Source of the DNA: Sulfurovum sp.
Lineage (GTDB): Bacteria > Campylobacterota > Campylobacteria > Campylobacterales > Sulfurovaceae
Reading direction: 5' to 3'
DNA length: 41,495 nucleotides
Assembly (NCBI GenBank): GCA_027062365.1
Contig: JAMOTK010000034.1
Location: forward strand, 1 to 41,495
Below the pieces are notes generated by a model, which saw only the letters and a program-made list of their open reading frames with translations, had not been told where the DNA came from and made no database searches. Every line of letters starts with the position of its first letter. Position 1 is the stretch's first letter. The position numbers and the translations under genes are program-made. Shown piece by piece: positions 1 through 26,245 of the stretch.

Positions 1-82
1 TACTTTTATAGCGTACTTCATTTTTTATGATTTCTTCTAATGCTTCAATTGTCTTTTTATTTAGGTCTGTTATATATCTCAT
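1..82 (-). CDS. Possible N-terminal end of an IS630-like transposase (cut by window edge)
   Basis: An ATG at 82 on the minus strand opens a frame that runs off the left edge, giving 27 codons. It begins MRYITDLNKKTIEALEEI and continues with an Asn-Glu-Val-Arg-Tyr-Lys-Ser stretch. IS630-family transposases often start with a short MRY.. helix followed by an Arg-rich segment leading into the helix-turn-helix, and this fragment resembles that. The match is short and from memory, so the family call is tentative. It could be any small helical protein. No terminal inverted repeat or TA target duplication can be judged because the rest lies outside the window. Confidence 0.35.
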   Translation of the reverse strand, partial: MRYITDLNKKTIEALEEIIKNEVRYKS

Positions 83-536
83 TTTGTATTATACTATTTT
101 TGATGATTTATTTTGGTTAGGTACTTAATAATGATAATGATGAGGTCATTTTAATGCGTATTGGTACGCATTCTGAATTGTTTTAGTAATTTAATATGAA
201 GAAATTATTCATAAAATTAGATTTACTGAAGGTGGGATTTTTGAGGGTTTTTTTGAGACTATAAAATAAACTGTATAGCCTCACCTCATAATCCTAAATC
301 AGTTAGTATATTTTGATATAAATTTGCTGAAGAATATGCTAAGTTGAAAGTGAATTTCAAATTACCTTCTCATACTAATTTTAGTTTGTTTTTGTAAAGC
401 CAGAGAGACGGGTGGCATTACAAGTCTCTTATATATTGGAATTTTGAGAGGGTCATTTTGAACTCCTATTTTTAAATATACGGAAGTATAGGATTATACA
501 TAGACACTAGTTGTCTTTAATTATATTTTATCCTCA
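83..536. other. AT-rich intergenic stretch without a convincing gene
   Basis: About 450 bases separate the left-edge frame from the DUF3883 gene. Only very short frames are present, for example one closing at 397 that reads FAEEYAKLKVNFKLPSH near its end, which could be the tail of a decayed gene but is too short to assign. Small inverted repeats occur at 153-172 and 502-516. No RNA gene or clear terminator is seen. Confidence 0.5.
153..172. repeat. Perfect inverted repeat, 8-bp arms and 4-bp loop
   Basis: AATGCGTA (153-160) and TACGCATT (165-172) are exact reverse complements around TTGG. It lies upstream of the left-edge frame on the minus strand. It is not followed by a T tract on either side, so an operator or element-end role is as likely as a terminator. 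Confidence 0.5.
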
Positions 537-1964
537 CTAAGTATCTTCTCTTCTTGACATTTTACAAATCAAACTTTCTATATCAAAACCTTTCACATTC
601 AACTTTTTCAAAGGGCTATCATCCTCATCAATTAAAATTTTTATTTTATCTGTCAAGTCAATATGTTCAGCCTTTTTTTCATCAACTCCTATTAGTCTCC
701 ATCTGTCTCCAAGTCTTTTAAAAGTATTAATCTCATTTCTTGTTAAATAAAGATAAATATTATCAATATCTATAGCTTTGATTTCATAAGCAATAATTTT
801 AGCATTCTCTACACCAACTACATCAAAACCAGCCCCTGTATGTTTTTGTGAAATTATAAGATTTAAAAAATTATCACCTTCGTAGCGATTAATATTTGCT
901 ATTGTCTTTTTCCAATCTTTTTGAATAACAAGATTATCATCTTCTAATATATCTTTTATATTTTTAGTATCTAGTTGTTCAGATACAAATTTAGCAAATA
1001 TTTTTTCAGCCAAAGAACCTTTTGAATACTTTGCAATATTAATTAATTTTTGTACTTTTTCATTTTCTTTTCTCTCTTCTTCTGAATACTCTGCATGTGG
1101 TTTAAAATTATTACCAATGCTCTTAGCTTCTAAAATACTATTTTCAACTGTCCTAGATTCAGGAATATGGTTTTGGTTTTGGTTTATTCTAGCCAGTTCT
1201 TCATCAAAATTATAACTAGCAAATTCTTTTTTTATATCTAAGTCAAGTAGTTTTAGATTAATATTGTCTAGTTGAATATCGGTATGTTCCTTGATTACTA
1301 AGTTGTACTTATTTTTAAACTGCTGAATAAGCAATCTATTTTTTGTTTCACAATCAAATTGAATAAATCTCTTTTCCAATTTTTCTTCAATTAATATATC
1401 ATCTATCAATATTTGAATATCATTTTCAGTTTTATCCTTACACTTAATACAAGAAAAATCATCTTGTGTATAATGTAATTTAAAAATAATCTCGTCCTTA
1501 AATCCAATATCTTTTAACTCTTGAACAATTTTCTTCTTTGTTGCCTCATCTATTTTTATCCACCATGAATTTATTCTATAAAAAAGTATTTTATTTTGTG
1601 TCTTAATTTTATTAGTCTCTTTACTCAAGATATATTGAAACTTACCCTCTAGTGATTGTGGTGCTTTAAGAATATCAATCAGAATATCAAAAAAATCATC
1701 AAGTCCAGTATCCTCTTTATAGTAAATTTTTTTATTTTCTTTGTCGTAAAATGGTTCATCTTGTTCAAACTCAACATTAAGATTATCTATCTTTACTTTA
1801 ATGACAGATTGTTTTTCAAACACTAAAGCTTCCCATGCTATTCTATGGGTGTTTATATATTCTTTACTACAAGATTCTTCATTTATTTTACTATCTTGAC
1901 TTTCTACTATTTCTAAAATTAAGTAGCATATCTTTTCTTCAATTTTATTCTTTATATTAAACAT
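537..1964 (-). CDS. DUF3883 (NO VEIN C-terminal) protein, nuclease-like, second gene of a GHKL/DUF3883 pair
   Basis: 475 aa, very Lys/Asn/Ile-rich. Residues about 315-435 match the DUF3883 pattern: a helical SLAEKIFAKFVSEQL segment, then GFDVVGV with D381, YEIKA with E394 and K396, the family hallmark LTRNEI (407-412) and RWRLIGV (421-427). The D...ExK spacing is that of PD-(D/E)XK nucleases, so a DNA-cleaving role is plausible but not shown. The first 300 residues are not recognised; a lone CxxC sits at 172-175. The start ATG shares one base with the stop of the upstream ATPase gene (TAATG) and has a GAGGAG site inside that gene, so the two are translationally coupled. By eye the G+C is about a quarter, well below neighbouring lsrK, which suggests acquisition. 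Confidence 0.8.
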   Translation of the reverse strand: MFNIKNKIEEKICYLILEIVESQDSKINEESCSKEYINTHRIAWEALVFEKQSVIKVKIDNLNVEFEQDEPFYDKENKKIYYKEDTGLDDFFDILIDILKAPQSLEGKFQYILSKETNKIKTQNKILFYRINSWWIKIDEATKKKIVQELKDIGFKDEIIFKLHYTQDDFSCIKCKDKTENDIQILIDDILIEEKLEKRFIQFDCETKNRLLIQQFKNKYNLVIKEHTDIQLDNINLKLLDLDIKKEFASYNFDEELARINQNQNHIPESRTVENSILEAKSIGNNFKPHAEYSEEERKENEKVQKLINIAKYSKGSLAEKIFAKFVSEQLDTKNIKDILEDDNLVIQKDWKKTIANINRYEGDNFLNLIISQKHTGAGFDVVGVENAKIIAYEIKAIDIDNIYLYLTRNEINTFKRLGDRWRLIGVDEKKAEHIDLTDKIKILIDEDDSPLKKLNVKGFDIESLICKMSRREDT

Positions 1965-4624
1965 TATTTATTCTCCTCAACTATGGATAATTTTAAATCT
2001 TCAGCAGCATTAAGTTTATCTGTAAAAGCCATTAAAAACTTCTTTTTAATTTGGTCTTTATGCTTCCAAATAAGATTAAAATCTTTCTTTGTTTTTGGCA
2101 CAAATACATCAGTTAATTCAGATAATTCTACTGTTCCATTATTGTATATTAGGTATTTTTTACTTGTAGAATCAATCTCTAGATGTCTATTAAATATACC
2201 TTGATACAGTTTCTTTTTTGTTTCTATATTAGTATTGTCCTCTACTAAACTAGACAATAACTTTTCTAAATATTCTTTAGGATATTTGTTAATAGATTTA
2301 ACTATTTCATTTAAGCTCGTATTTTCATTTAAGCTCGTATTTTTAGTCTTTATCTCTTTTAATAGAGGCTCATAATTTTTATGCTTAGAACATTCCCAAG
2401 CAAACTTTTTTTCTTTATCTACTAAATTAACTATTGCAATATTGGGAATAATTTTACTTGCTTGTAATTGCCCCTCATCTTCAACTACAGCAGGAATACA
2501 CTTCAACCCATCTTTATAATTATCATAAATTTCACCCTCACAGAAAATATATTTATCATCAAAAGATACGCCCAAAAATTGTAAAAAATTATTAAAATCA
2601 TTCTTACCTTCCAATTCTCTATAAAAATCATCTTCTAAATCTAATTCTAAATCTTTTTGTCTACAAAGTTGAGCTGGTTTATATTTATCTCCTTTTATTT
2701 TTAAAAATATAGTAGATATTGAGAAAAAAGCATTGTTTTCTGCATTAGCATTATCTCGTAATTTATCATCAATATATTTACCGTATCTATGAGTAGAGAA
2801 ATATTTTGTCTTCTCTTTTACCTTATATACTTGATATAAAAAGTTTAAAATTTCTTTTTGTTCTTCTTCTGTATAATTATGGTCAGATAAATTTTGGGAA
2901 AGCATATTTTTTGGAATTTGCCTAAAATGTTTCAAAATTGCATTAGAATTGGTCAAATTCCTTAGTTTTATATCTTTAAATTCAGGATATGATGCTGTTA
3001 ATTCATCAATGTTTTTCAATCTATAGCTAGTTACTTTGATAGTATTTATAAAGCTTGGAATAACTAGACTAGCTTCATCATTTTTTCCTGTATCTTTTTT
3101 GAAAAAAATATCAATATCAAAGGATGACTTATCCACTAAAACTTGTTCCCCTTCAATTACTTGCGTAATGGGGATACATCTAATACTTTTTAGTTTCGAT
3201 AAATACTGTTTATTAAATGCTCTTCTAATCCATTTAATACTAAATAAAGATGACCCTATGTGATTTACTTTTTCTAATTTGAAATAATCAAAAACAACCT
3301 TCCAGAAATCATCAAAATTTTGAATAGTTAAATTATTTTTTTCATCAAAATATTTTTTAGCTAACTTGGCTATAAAGTTTCCAAAATTATTCCAGTCATC
3401 ATTAAATATTTTTTTGATAATTTTAATAGTCTCTTTTCTTACCAAAGGCTCATTATTTAGCTGTAAATATTTCCACAAATTATTATCATCAAAATTAACT
3501 ATATTATTATTTTTATCTTCGATATATTCAAAATTAAAGCAATTAGTACAATCATCAATATACTTGGATAATGACAAAAAATGTAATTCAATACAAGCAG
3601 TCAAAAGTGCTGTATTATATTGAGAAATTTTTCCACTTTTATTAAAATCCATTGATTCTCTATTCTCTTTTGTCTGAAAATCTGAATTTATGTCGCAGTG
3701 AAGAAAAGGGCTTTTCATTTTAGTTGGTAGATAAGTATAGATATTTGTAGTTTCATTTTCATTAAAGTATAGAGATACATTAGGAAGATTAGCACTCAAT
3801 CCAGCTTCTTCTGACAATTTTTTTAATTCGTCTTTATTTTTTAATACTCCAGTAATTAAATTTTTATTGCTAGTTTCCCTTGAAAAATCATCATTAGAAT
3901 TAGGGTGAAAATCAATTGTTATATTTTGGGAATGAGCTTTTTTTGTACTAACAAAATAAAAATGTTTTTTCTTGATTTCCTCAAATAACTTGTCAATATC
4001 AAGCCCCTCTTTTAAAGGAATTTTTATCACTGTGACATAGTTATCAAATTCACTGCTTAACTTTTCATCTTCTAAAAGAATAGGATAATAAAATCCTGCT
4101 ATAAACTTTTTTTTATTGGTTAATTGTCTGTTTATAGAAGCATTATTTTTATATTTTTTTTCTTTTTCTACAATATCTTTATCTATTTTTCCATAATATT
4201 TAAAAACTATAAATTCTTCATTATCATCAGGTTTAGCATAAATAGTTACACTACCATCAGAGGAAGAAGAAAATACTGATTTAAATCCTATACCTTTGTT
4301 ACCAATAGAGTCTGCTGAACTTTTATTTGAATTATGAATGGAACATAAGGCTTTAAAATCACTATCTCCATCTTCTCCGAAGGTCATTCTCTTGCCATTA
4401 TTAGCAATATAAAGCTCATTATCAATAACTTTAACTAAGATTTTATCTTCTGCTTTATCAAGTGCATTTTGAAGTAATTCAAAGATAACTCTATCTTCAT
4501 ACGCTTTTATTACTTCGCCTATATCCCCACTTTGCTCTGCAACAGTTATTGGTGGTAACTTCTGTTTTTCTTCCCAATGGTTTTTAAATACATCTTCTAT
4601 CTTGCTTCTAGTACCTTCTTCCAT
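1964..4624 (-). CDS. GHKL (sacsin/NO VEIN-type) ATPase, first gene of a GHKL/DUF3883 pair
   Basis: 886 aa from the ATG at 4624. A TTG three bases earlier is in frame, but AAGGAG lies 5 bases before the ATG, which favours the ATG. The N-terminal 150 residues form a Bergerat ATP-binding fold: N-box FELLQNALDKAED (Glu and Asn about 49-53), a degenerate G1 box around IANNGKRM (74-81) and the glycine lid SIGNKGIGFKSVF (about 106-118). This is the HSP90/sacsin subgroup, also seen in plant NO VEIN and in many uncharacterised bacterial proteins near restriction or phage-defence genes. The remaining roughly 700 residues have no motif I recognise. It is followed without a gap by the DUF3883 gene, so the pair probably acts together. 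The sequence is strongly AT-rich, and no helicase or methyltransferase gene is nearby. Confidence 0.85.
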   Translation of the reverse strand: MEEGTRSKIEDVFKNHWEEKQKLPPITVAEQSGDIGEVIKAYEDRVIFELLQNALDKAEDKILVKVIDNELYIANNGKRMTFGEDGDSDFKALCSIHNSNKSSADSIGNKGIGFKSVFSSSSDGSVTIYAKPDDNEEFIVFKYYGKIDKDIVEKEKKYKNNASINRQLTNKKKFIAGFYYPILLEDEKLSSEFDNYVTVIKIPLKEGLDIDKLFEEIKKKHFYFVSTKKAHSQNITIDFHPNSNDDFSRETSNKNLITGVLKNKDELKKLSEEAGLSANLPNVSLYFNENETTNIYTYLPTKMKSPFLHCDINSDFQTKENRESMDFNKSGKISQYNTALLTACIELHFLSLSKYIDDCTNCFNFEYIEDKNNNIVNFDDNNLWKYLQLNNEPLVRKETIKIIKKIFNDDWNNFGNFIAKLAKKYFDEKNNLTIQNFDDFWKVVFDYFKLEKVNHIGSSLFSIKWIRRAFNKQYLSKLKSIRCIPITQVIEGEQVLVDKSSFDIDIFFKKDTGKNDEASLVIPSFINTIKVTSYRLKNIDELTASYPEFKDIKLRNLTNSNAILKHFRQIPKNMLSQNLSDHNYTEEEQKEILNFLYQVYKVKEKTKYFSTHRYGKYIDDKLRDNANAENNAFFSISTIFLKIKGDKYKPAQLCRQKDLELDLEDDFYRELEGKNDFNNFLQFLGVSFDDKYIFCEGEIYDNYKDGLKCIPAVVEDEGQLQASKIIPNIAIVNLVDKEKKFAWECSKHKNYEPLLKEIKTKNTSLNENTSLNEIVKSINKYPKEYLEKLLSSLVEDNTNIETKKKLYQGIFNRHLEIDSTSKKYLIYNNGTVELSELTDVFVPKTKKDFNLIWKHKDQIKKKFLMAFTDKLNAAEDLKLSIVEENK
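2308..2343. repeat. Tandem duplication of 18 bp inside the GHKL ATPase gene
   Basis: Two exact 18-bp copies (2308-2325 and 2326-2343) encode a doubled Asn-Thr-Ser-Leu-Asn-Glu in the C-terminal part of the ATPase. The frame is kept. It looks like a recent slippage duplication. Confidence 0.85.
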
Positions 4625-4642
4625 CAAAACTCCTTGTCCAAA

Positions 4643-4694
4643 ATTATACTACCATTAACTTGATAAAGGCACTTCATTCACCTAACTTTATCAA
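4643..4694 (-). promoter_or_regulatory. Promoter and inverted-repeat operator candidate of the GHKL/DUF3883 operon
   Basis: On the minus strand TATAAT occupies 4648-4643, about 20 bases before the start codon of the ATPase gene. Just upstream, TTGATAAAG (4660-4668) and CTTTATCAA (4686-4694) are exact 9-bp inverted arms 17 bases apart, covering the expected -35 region. The position suits a dimeric repressor or activator. No regulator gene is adjacent. The -35 itself is weak. Confidence 0.5.
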
Positions 4695-4757: not shown

Positions 4758-6320
4758 TCAAACCCCTGGAGCCATCCACATGCTTGTGGTTAGTCCTTTG
4801 TCTACAAGTCCAAGTTGTGTGCTATAGACTTCTTGCCATTGTGTTTTTATCTTTTGATAGAGGGTGTGGTTTTGGTTGTTTGGGGTGTAGGTTTTATCCC
4901 ATTTTACCCATGCTAGGGAGGCACTGTCTATCGTGGGGTATAGTCCTGCTCCTACGGATGCACTCATGGCTGTGCCGAGGGCTGTGGCTTCTTTGACTTT
5001 GGGGATTTTTATGGTGCATCCTGTGACATCGCTGAGTATTTGACACCACAATTCTCCTTTACTTGCTCCTCCTGCAAAGACAATTTCATCTATCTCTAGT
5101 GCTGTAAATGCTTTGATTTTTTCTAGGTTAATCATAGAGACGATACAGGCATTTTCTTCTAGGCTTCTAAACATTGAGGCTTTATTGCATACCTTTGCAT
5201 CTAAAGAAAGATTGATAAAAGAAGGACTTGCATGGTACCATTTACCATAATTCATACTGTCCGAAAAGATAGGTAAAATACCATGAGAGCCTACAGGTAC
5301 ATCTTTGGCTTTTTCTTCTAGTAGGGTATAGGTATCTATCCCTCTTTGTGTTGCATCACGCTTTTCTAGCTCACAAAATGCATCTCTAAACCATCGCATA
5401 ATAAGCCCTGAGAAAAAGGTAATGCCCTCAGCTTGTGAGAGTCCAGCGATGACATGAGGATTGACTCTGATACCCATATCTTTAGGCGGTTTTACGGATG
5501 ATTTTATGTTGACCACTTGTTGCCAAAAAGAGCCTCCTAGTATGGCTACTTGCCCCTCTTTGACCACACCCAATCCTGCTGCACCTAACTGTACATCGCC
5601 TCCACCCATGACTACTTTGGTTTGGGTAGAGAGTCCTGTTTGGAGCGATGCTTCGCTTGTGACTCTCCCCATGAGTGTACCTGTCTCTAAAGATGGAGGA
5701 AATATATCTGCTTTAATCCCCACCTTTTGAGCCATAGAAGCGACCCAATCTCTCTTTTGTAAGTCATAAATACCTGTAGTTCCTCCATTGCTAGGGTCTG
5801 TAGCGATGACCCCTGAAAGCTTGGCTAATATCCAATCTCCTATCATAGAAATGGAGGCTACTTTGTCATAAAGTGTAGGTTCATTATGTTTGAGCCACAA
5901 AATACGAGGCAATGCCCCCAATGCAAAGGTTTGACCCGATTGTTGATAAAATTCTTCTTCTATGCCTTGATAGGTCTCTTTGAGTTCTTTTACTTCTTTA
6001 TCGGCTCTTGCATCGACATTTGCCACTGCCCATAGTGCCTCTCCTTCTTTGTCATAGAGTACGATACCCTCACGCATAGAAGTAGCAGAAACAGCAAGAA
6101 TATCAGAGCCTTTTAGCTTCGCATTTTCTAAAGATTGAGAAATACACTTTCGTGTCAACTCCCAATTTTTATCTGTATCAAAAGTCATAGAATTAGCCAC
6201 ACCTGCTACGGTTAGATGTGTCCATTCTTGTTGTGCTACTGCGATTTGATTGCCATTACTATCAAAGATAACAGCCCGTACTGAACCTGTCCCTGCGTCT
6301 ATTGCCATGAGATATTGCAT
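4758..6320 (-). CDS. lsrK: Autoinducer-2 kinase LsrK (FGGY family)
   Basis: 520 aa from the ATG at 6320, which has AAGG 9 bases upstream; a longer frame reaching 6356 lacks such a site. LsrK phosphorylates linear DPD (autoinducer-2) in the cytoplasm, trapping it after uptake. The sequence follows enterobacterial LsrK almost end to end: YLMAIDAGTGSVRAVIFD near the N-terminus, SMREGIVLY, ANVDARADKEVKELKE, VVMGGGDVQLGAAGLG, MRWFRDAFCELEK, GIDTYTLLEE, LPIFSDSMNYGKWYHASPS, VFAGGASKGELWCQILSDV and the ending LGLVDKGLTTSMWMAPG. Length agrees with the family. None of lsrA/B/C/D/F/R lies beside it, which is unusual. G+C is close to the rest of the chromosome and above the AT-rich pair downstream. Confidence in family is high; true substrate in this host is inferred. 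Confidence 0.93.
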   Translation of the reverse strand: MQYLMAIDAGTGSVRAVIFDSNGNQIAVAQQEWTHLTVAGVANSMTFDTDKNWELTRKCISQSLENAKLKGSDILAVSATSMREGIVLYDKEGEALWAVANVDARADKEVKELKETYQGIEEEFYQQSGQTFALGALPRILWLKHNEPTLYDKVASISMIGDWILAKLSGVIATDPSNGGTTGIYDLQKRDWVASMAQKVGIKADIFPPSLETGTLMGRVTSEASLQTGLSTQTKVVMGGGDVQLGAAGLGVVKEGQVAILGGSFWQQVVNIKSSVKPPKDMGIRVNPHVIAGLSQAEGITFFSGLIMRWFRDAFCELEKRDATQRGIDTYTLLEEKAKDVPVGSHGILPIFSDSMNYGKWYHASPSFINLSLDAKVCNKASMFRSLEENACIVSMINLEKIKAFTALEIDEIVFAGGASKGELWCQILSDVTGCTIKIPKVKEATALGTAMSASVGAGLYPTIDSASLAWVKWDKTYTPNNQNHTLYQKIKTQWQEVYSTQLGLVDKGLTTSMWMAPGV

Positions 6321-6450
6321 TGTTTTTTTCCTTTGAATTATATCTAATAGATACAATGGTAGTGCAAATAATACCTTTTGTCAAGACTTCACTCTGCGAC
6401 TCATTTTTACTTTGCGAAGAGGTTTAATAAGTGGCATCATGCTTTTTAGA

Positions 6451-25093: not shown

Positions 25094-26245
25094 TTGAATA
25101 ATTTATGGGATGATGCCAAAGCATTGGCGTGTAAGAGTGATTTGGAATTGCGAGTTTATAGCTCTAACCTTTTGGGGCAGAGTGATGAGCTTGTGCTTCA
25201 TGGTGGGGGAAATACTTCTGTAAAATCTAGCGTTGATGGCGAAGAGATACTTTTTGTCAAAGGTTCGGGATGGGATTTGGTGTCTATCAAAGCAGAGGGT
25301 TTTGCTCCTGTGAAGATGGCGACGCTGTTGGAAATGGCAAAGCTAGAGAGTCTAAGTGATATAGATATGGTAGCAGGGCAAAAAGAGGCGATGATAGACA
25401 AGTCTGCTCCAAATCCCTCCGTAGAAGCCATACTTCATGCCCTTATTCCCTTTAAAGTTGTTGACCATACCCATGCTGATGCCATTGTGACCATTAGCAA
25501 TTCTAAGCAAGGTCAAACGCATATCAAGAGCCTTTATCCCAATTTTTTAATCATTCCTTATGTCATGCCTGGGTTTATTTTGGCACAAAAAATTTATGAA
25601 ATGACGCAAAATAACTTTGATTGGGAGTCTTGTGAAGGGTTAATTTTACACAATCATGGTATTTTTACCTTTGATGATGATGCAAAGAAATCTTATACAA
25701 AAATGATAGAAGCCGTAAGCTTAGCAGAAGCATTTTTAGACAAACACGCCCCTATTTTCTTAGACCACAAAATATCCAAAGCTTTTGATATTGAAGACCT
25801 ATCTTTAGATAAGTTTAGACATATCAACCAAAGCCCTCTAGCCGTGCATTATGCTTCACAAGAAAACCTAAGAACACAAGTCACAAGAGGCGTTCTCACT
25901 CCTGAGCATATTATCCGAACCAAACGCATACCTTTGGTCATAGAAGATTGGGATATTGAAGATGCGATTAGACATTTTATAGTAGATTATGAGACTTATT
26001 TTTCTGCCTATAAAACAGATGAAATCATGCTAGACAGCCGTCCAAAATACGCCGTCATCAAAGATTTCGGCATCGTCACCTTTGGCAAAACCCAAAAAGA
26101 AGCCGATGTCATTAACGATGTCATCACACACACGATGAAAGCAGTACTTCGTGCCGATAAGCTCGGTGGCTATCAAAGTATTTCTATTGCTGATAGTTTT
26201 GCGATGGAGTATTGGGAGTTGGAACAGGCGAAGTTGAAGGGGTAA
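25094..26245 (+). CDS. Class II aldolase/adducin-family protein (RhaD/RhaE aldolase-like)
   Basis: 383 aa from a TTG at 25094, chosen because NLWDDAKAL is the normal N-terminus of the rhamnulose-1-phosphate aldolase/dehydrogenase group. The zinc-dependent aldolase site is visible: HGGGNTSVK (36-44), VKGSGWDL (55-62), PNPSVEAILHA with Glu111, DHTHAD (H125, H127) and ILHNHGIFTF (H186, H188). The C-terminal 180 residues are present but the short-chain dehydrogenase half found in bifunctional RhaD proteins is absent. No rhamnose genes are nearby. It is linked to the ABM-domain gene, which points to processing of a small phosphorylated sugar or ketone, but the substrate is unknown. Confidence 0.8.
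   Translation: MNNLWDDAKALACKSDLELRVYSSNLLGQSDELVLHGGGNTSVKSSVDGEEILFVKGSGWDLVSIKAEGFAPVKMATLLEMAKLESLSDIDMVAGQKEAMIDKSAPNPSVEAILHALIPFKVVDHTHADAIVTISNSKQGQTHIKSLYPNFLIIPYVMPGFILAQKIYEMTQNNFDWESCEGLILHNHGIFTFDDDAKKSYTKMIEAVSLAEAFLDKHAPIFLDHKISKAFDIEDLSLDKFRHINQSPLAVHYASQENLRTQVTRGVLTPEHIIRTKRIPLVIEDWDIEDAIRHFIVDYETYFSAYKTDEIMLDSRPKYAVIKDFGIVTFGKTQKEADVINDVITHTMKAVLRADKLGGYQSISIADSFAMEYWELEQAKLKG

What the first reader, a model, noticed from the sequence alone, without database searches (positions are those of the whole stretch)
537..4624. Split NO VEIN-like pair: GHKL ATPase plus DUF3883 nuclease-like protein
The first gene has a sacsin/NO VEIN-type Bergerat ATPase (N-box FELLQNALD, lid SIGNKGIGFKSVF). 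The second has the DUF3883 domain that ends plant NO VEIN, with D381 and E394/K396 in a nuclease-like layout. In plants both are one protein; here they are two coupled genes sharing a TAATG junction. Both are strikingly AT-rich, lie next to a possible transposase end, and carry no helicase or methyltransferase. This points to a compact two-gene system, most likely antiviral, whose mechanism is not known to me.
Basis: partly seen in the sequence, partly recalled or inferred. Interest (0 to 1): 0.72.

Follow-up and report, generated by a model that had tools for sequence, protein, structure and literature searches.

The report
Split two-gene Tiamat-type defence operon
Two overlapping, very AT-rich bacterial genes together encode the two ends of one large known anti-phage protein (Tiamat, a relative of plant NO VEIN): an Hsp90-like ATPase on one gene and a DNA-cutting-enzyme-like domain on the other, a rare split form of a known kind of probable virus defence.

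Summary
A (1964-4624, minus, 886 aa) has a sacsin-type GHKL ATPase (NF047352, E 2.8e-18). B (537-1964, minus, 475 aa) ends in a NOV_C/DUF3883 domain with E320, D381 and E394-x-K396. The genes overlap at TAATG, with GAGGAG before B's ATG. GC is 25-26%, against 33-42% in neighbours. A multicopy element lies at the contig end.

The pair matches the two ends of the single-chain defence protein Tiamat (TmtA). A aligns with residues 16-846 of a 1633-aa relative (E 2e-42); B's last 107 residues align with 1515-1632 of the same protein (E 7e-9). In trees A joins three such fused proteins with 100/99 support, and B's nuclease domain joins the same three with 88/87. A's last ~190 residues and B's first ~310 match nothing found.

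Both genes are accessory: A occurs in 1 of 78 genus genomes. DUF3883 in this phylum often sits beside Qat, restriction-modification or other GHKL genes.

Best reading: a split Tiamat-type system in which an ATP-driven GHKL clamp (A) senses infection and licenses a separate PD-(D/E)xK nuclease (B). Defence and mechanism are inferred; the closest tested precedent is VcSduA. This is a new variant of a known kind.

The parts
1964..4624 (-). Gene A, 886 aa: sacsin/NO VEIN-type GHKL (Bergerat) ATPase, matching the N-terminal half of single-chain Tiamat; last ~190 aa without detectable relatives
4457..4483 (-). N-box FELLQNALD (A48-56), GHKL motif I
4271..4309 (-). ATP lid SIGNKGIGFKSVF (A106-118), GHKL motif III
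537..1964 (-). Gene B, 475 aa: N-terminal ~310 aa without detectable relatives, C-terminal NOV_C/DUF3883 PD-(D/E)xK-like nuclease domain
540..1019 (-). Nuclease-like domain of B (aa 316-475): GSLAE (E320), GAGFD (D381), YEIK (E394, K396), C-terminal end MSRRED shared with fused relatives
1962..1966 (-). TAATG: stop of A overlapping start of B by one base; GAGGAG ribosome site for B at 1973-1978
4630..4648 (-). AAGGAG ribosome site of A (4630-4635) and a TATAAT hexamer (4643-4648); own promoter possible but not shown
   Evidence: the consensus scan did not list this site
4..127 (.). End of a multicopy element at the contig start, repeated in four other contigs of the same genome

Best explanation
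A-B is a two-gene (split) version of the Tiamat (TmtA)/NO VEIN superfamily and most likely a phage-defence operon. A is an ATP-driven GHKL dimer clamp that senses an infection cue; ATP binding closes it. B is a separate PD-(D/E)xK-type nuclease subunit held to A through the unshared C-terminus of A and N-terminus of B, and it cuts DNA (the invader's, or all DNA as a last resort) only when A is engaged. Shown: domains, motifs, collinearity with single-chain Tiamat-like proteins, overlap and spacing of the genes, accessory distribution. Inferred: complex formation, ATP gating, DNA as substrate, the trigger, and defence itself.
For: A vs fused relatives: Natronosalvus residues 16-846, E 2e-42; Thiodictyon E 9e-33. 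A in one clade with these fused proteins, 100/99. B's nuclease against the same three proteins E 4e-10 to 4e-11, against any other NOV_C protein tested no better than 3e-4; clade 88/87. Alignment runs to the shared C-terminal end. TmtA models: A best E 5.6e-42, with one model spanning A39-688 vs 41-691/1538; B vs 1686-1743/1782 of another. Active-site residues of both halves conserved. Accessory. Defence contexts of relatives: fused TmtA-like gene beside QatA- and QatC-matching genes, IetA-, HEC-05- and Thoeris-like neighbours, restriction-modification genes, GHKL gene next to a DUF3883 gene in R-M-like cassettes. Precedent: VcSduA (GHKL + PD-(D/E)xK) restricts phage, and E27A or K557A abolish it (PMC12137116).
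Against: No second copy of the A-B arrangement was found, so there is no evidence from conservation of the pair. No other defence gene was found in the part of the window tested (only weak matches for one AAA gene). Single-sequence structure models failed (pLDDT 31 and 33), so neither the folds nor an A-B interface were modelled. B alone is borderline for NOV_C. The unshared middle may mean a changed function.
Confidence: 0.62

Rival explanations
1. A broken single-chain Tiamat gene: a frameshift or deletion recently cut one ORF into two, and the locus is decaying.
For: All closest relatives are single chains of ~1630-1660 aa; the pair is shorter in total (1361 aa) and unique in the genomes searched; it sits beside a multicopy element.
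Against: B has its own ribosome site and start overlapping A's stop, with a stop two codons upstream in its frame. Both frames are intact with conserved motifs at both ends. The inner ends of A and B show no residual similarity to the middle of the fused proteins, as expected for an old, separately evolved split and not for a fresh break.
Confidence: 0.12
2. Toxin-antitoxin-like or abortive system: B is a toxic nuclease restrained by A, released when infection disturbs A.
For: Separate effector gene translationally coupled to its partner; two-gene coupling is common in such modules (general knowledge).
Against: Partner very large (886 aa), unlike classical modules. In the closest tested architecture (VcSduA) cultures were protected at all tested multiplicities of infection, consistent with direct restriction (PMC12137116).
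Confidence: 0.16
3. A housekeeping or stress role (Hsp90/sacsin-like chaperone or DNA repair), not defence.
For: GHKL fold related to Hsp90: the A3 profile matches Hsp90 N-domains at the lid motif, E ~0.001.
Against: Present in 1 of 78 genus genomes and, at full length, in 1 of 298 phylum genomes; deviant GC; relatives on plasmids and beside defence genes.
Confidence: 0.1

Closest known systems
Tiamat (TmtA; Millman et al. 2022, not in the held library), single-gene phage defence
   Same: Sacsin-type GHKL ATPase at one end, DUF3883 nuclease-like domain at the other; A matches seven TmtA models, B one; both ends fall with the same fused TmtA-like proteins.
   Different: Two genes instead of one; shorter in total than the closest fused relatives; middle region not detectably related.
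Plant NO VEIN (NOV)
   Same: Same two domain types in the same order (from the Pfam/NCBIfam family names and general knowledge); Tiamat searches also pick up plant genes (PMC12409356).
   Different: Single chain in plants; the plant sequence itself was not compared here.
VcSduA / type I-D Shedu (paraMORC3), PMC12137116
   Same: GHKL ATPase coupled to a PD-(D/E)xK nuclease without helicase or methyltransferase.
   Different: Nuclease is DUF4263, in one chain; GHKL not of sacsin type.
Two-gene helicase-DUF3883 + sacsin-type ATPase locus (Niveispirillum plasmid, L130)
   Same: GHKL and DUF3883 on separate neighbouring genes.
   Different: DUF3883 is fused to an SNF2-type helicase; the window pair has no helicase.
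GHKL + standalone ~450-aa DUF3883 genes in R-M-like cassettes (G407/L099, G381/L101)
   Same: Separate GHKL and DUF3883 genes next to or near each other in the same phylum.
   Different: Different GHKL family (HATPase_c_3), different N-terminus of the DUF3883 protein, extra R-M-like genes; not detected by TmtA models.

Membership tests
Tiamat (TmtA) | N-terminal sacsin-type GHKL ATPase region matching TmtA models | tested here: met
   E 5.6e-42 (PDLC03970), A39-688 vs 41-691/1538 of PDLC03964 (E 1.1e-25)
Tiamat (TmtA) | C-terminal DUF3883 domain matching TmtA models | tested here: met
   B 376-429 vs 1686-1743/1782, E 0.002; confirmed against fused relatives E 7e-9
Tiamat (TmtA) | One gene, one chain carrying both domains | tested here: not met
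   two overlapping ORFs in different frames
Tiamat (TmtA) | Protects against phage | not testable with these tools
   needs plating assays
NOV_C / DUF3883 domain (PF13020) | Profile score over the curated cut-off of 22.1 bits | tested here: inconclusive
   20.3 bits in hmmscan, 22.9 in the six-frame search
PD-(D/E)xK nuclease | D and E-x-K active-site pattern conserved in relatives | tested here: met
   D381, E394, K396; conserved in ten fused and six standalone relatives; Anantharaman et al. call DUF3883 a novel REase domain (PMC3710099)
PD-(D/E)xK nuclease | Fold and cleavage activity | tested here: inconclusive
   model pLDDT 31; activity not testable here
GHKL ATPase | N-box E/N, G-rich lid motif | tested here: met
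   NF047352 over cut-off
Shedu (DUF4263) | DUF4263 nuclease domain | tested here: not met
   no such Pfam, NCBIfam or PADLOC hit

The most novel reading that the evidence does not exclude
A defence type in which the Tiamat ATPase clamp and its nuclease are dissociable subunits joined by two domains with no known relatives (last ~190 aa of A, first ~310 aa of B), so that nuclease recruitment, not just activation in place, is the switch.
Probability: 0.3. Interest if true: 0.55.

Novelty: new variant of a known kind. Interest (0 to 1): 0.42.

Why it matters
A 2026 review lists Tiamat's mechanism as unknown (PMC12926258), and its ~1600-aa single chain is hard to dissect. A natural split gives the ATPase and the nuclease as separate, smaller proteins (886 and 475 aa), so that binding, ATP gating and cleavage could be tested one by one; results would bear on Tiamat and, more distantly, on plant NO VEIN.

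Tried and rejected
Direct relatives of A or B by back-translated patterns: none in genome contigs or viral contigs. tblastn: A found three plasmids only; no phage hits for A or B, no plasmid hit for B. Searching other phyla with the genome search was not possible. Structure prediction of A and B alone: unusable, so no fold search was run. Homology of B's N-terminus and A's C-terminus to the middle of fused proteins: a MAFFT alignment looked suggestive, but profile scores did not exceed those of 300 shuffles, so rejected. Full-length relation of B to the standalone ~450-aa DUF3883 family: only the nuclease part matches, weakly. The weak A-like hits at 330-439 in many genus genomes are short, E ~1e-4, and were treated as unrelated. 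The sacsin ATPase profile also rings in nearly all genomes of the phylum below its cut-off (open frames of ~620-670 aa, which fit HtpG/Hsp90); only the window's gene passes the cut-off. An early guess of a prophage at 27-41 kb was dropped: no PHROG support apart from one weak match of unknown function; ORF order and lengths at ~30.6-41.3 kb look like a ribosomal-protein operon (judged from lengths, not tested).

Full report
OBSERVATION. Two minus-strand genes fill 537-4624. A (ATG 4624, stop 1964-1966; 886 aa) comes first, then B (ATG at 1964; 475 aa), overlapping as TAATG. Both have a ribosome site at a fitting distance: AAGGAG for A, GAGGAG for B. B's frame is closed two codons upstream of its ATG. 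The longest stop-free run in 200 shuffles of the region was 155 codons. GC is 0.26 with GC3 0.17, against 0.33-0.42 and 0.25-0.40 in seven other genes of the window. The contig starts at window base 1; bases 4-127 recur in four other contigs, three times at a contig start, so the operon lies next to a multicopy element and its far side is lost to assembly.

DOMAINS. A: sacsin N-terminal ATPase (NF047352, 66 bits, cut-off 50), N-box FELLQNALD, lid SIGNKGIGFKSVF; a profile made with relatives touches the Hsp90 N-domain at the lid, E ~0.001. B: NOV_C at 368-428, borderline by score (20.3 bits; 22.9; cut-off 22.1), with G-x-x-A-E (E320), GFD (D381) and E-I-K (E394, K396). D and E-x-K recur in ten fused and six standalone relatives. 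Anantharaman et al. 2013 call DUF3883 a novel REase domain (PMC3710099).

WHAT IT IS. PADLOC's Tiamat models (TmtA) match A strongly (best E 5.6e-42), one of them across A39-688, and B's nuclease matches the end of another (E 0.002). Three single-chain TmtA-like proteins on plasmids (Natronosalvus 1633 aa, Thiodictyon 1659 aa, Halorussus 1640 aa) carry both ends: A 8-783 aligns to 16-846 of the first (E 2e-42) and B 369-474 to 1515-1632 (E 7e-9), through to the common C-terminus. In a tree of 20 sacsin-type ATPase regions A joins exactly these three (100/99). In a tree of nuclease domains B joins the same three (88/87), and its BLAST E-values (4e-10 to 4e-11) are far better than to any other NOV_C protein tested (3e-4 or worse). 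The pair therefore corresponds to the two ends of one fused lineage. The inner ends, A ~690-886 and B ~1-310, have no detectable relation to the middle of the fused proteins by profile against 300 shuffles and no Pfam family.

DISTRIBUTION AND CONTEXT. A is absent from the other 77 held genomes of its genus (the only other sacsin-type match there is a remote one in G332, next to a helicase gene) and no full-length relative occurs in 298 phylum genomes; it is accessory. NOV_C occurs in 30 of 397 phylum genomes. Among the loci read there are a fused TmtA-like gene next to QatA/QatC-matching genes (L104, on the Sulfuricurvum kujiense plasmid), a 1751-aa fused TmtA (L102), and ~450-aa standalone DUF3883 genes that in two genomes sit beside or near a different GHKL ATPase in R-M-like cassettes (L099, L101). 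Of the plasmid and chromosome loci scanned, all with both a sacsin ATPase and NOV_C had them in one chain, except the window and the Niveispirillum locus, where DUF3883 sits on an SNF2-type helicase. The window pair is the only helicase-free split seen.

MECHANISM. The nearest tested architecture is VcSduA, a GHKL ATPase fused to a PD-(D/E)xK nuclease: it restricts phage, both active sites are needed, and cultures are protected at all tested multiplicities (PMC12137116). GHKL proteins coupled to nucleases, fused or as neighbouring genes, are a recurrent theme of restriction systems (MORC/paraMORC; PMC2292703). By analogy A would be an ATP-operated clamp and B its nuclease. In the split form the contact has to be non-covalent, and the unshared inner ends are the obvious candidates. 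All of this is inference.

COMPARISON AND NOVELTY. It probably works like, and belongs to the same lineage as, Tiamat, but fails the single-chain criterion, so it is a split variant, not a plain member. Plant NO VEIN is a more distant relative; Tiamat searches detect plant genes (PMC12409356). I found no report of a split Tiamat in the held library, but the defining paper (Millman et al. 2022) is not held, so that absence is weak evidence.

LIMITS. Only one phylum could be searched at genome level, the structure models failed, and there is no second instance of the pair.

Noticed in passing
window 4-127: Multicopy sequence also in contigs C36, C45, C49 and C56 of the same genome; shorter inverted-orientation pairs of its bases ~90-130 on C9, C55 and C58 look like a small derived element. 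Its minus-strand frame begins MRYITDLNKKTIEALEEIIKNEVRYKS, with no Pfam match above cut-off.
   Followed up: partly
window 4758-6356 and 25094-26245: An FGGY-kinase gene (LsrK-like) lies beside a class II aldolase-like gene in three of the genus relatives read (L060, L061, L062), but ~19 kb away and on the other strand in the window; several relatives carry extra partial copies of the kinase gene. The region looks recombination-prone.
   Followed up: partly
window 4660-4694: Perfect 9-bp inverted repeat TTGATAAAG/CTTTATCAA with a 17-nt gap, just upstream of A's putative promoter; could be an operator.
   Followed up: no
L099:7867-12879 and L101:2269-8112: Cassettes with an AAA ATPase (L099 copy matches PtuA/OLD-type models), a GHKL ATPase and a ~450-aa DUF3883 protein next to R-M-like genes; the GHKL and DUF3883 proteins match no PADLOC model.
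   Followed up: partly
L130:1896-10173 (also L125, L126, L127, L144): Two-gene SNF2-helicase + sacsin-type ATPase loci; in L130 the helicase carries NOV_C. The helicases in L125 and L144 match DrmD of DISARM best.
   Followed up: partly
L104:4853-7915: Fused 1020-aa sacsin/NOV_C protein directly upstream of QatA- and QatC-matching genes on the Sulfuricurvum kujiense plasmid.
   Followed up: no
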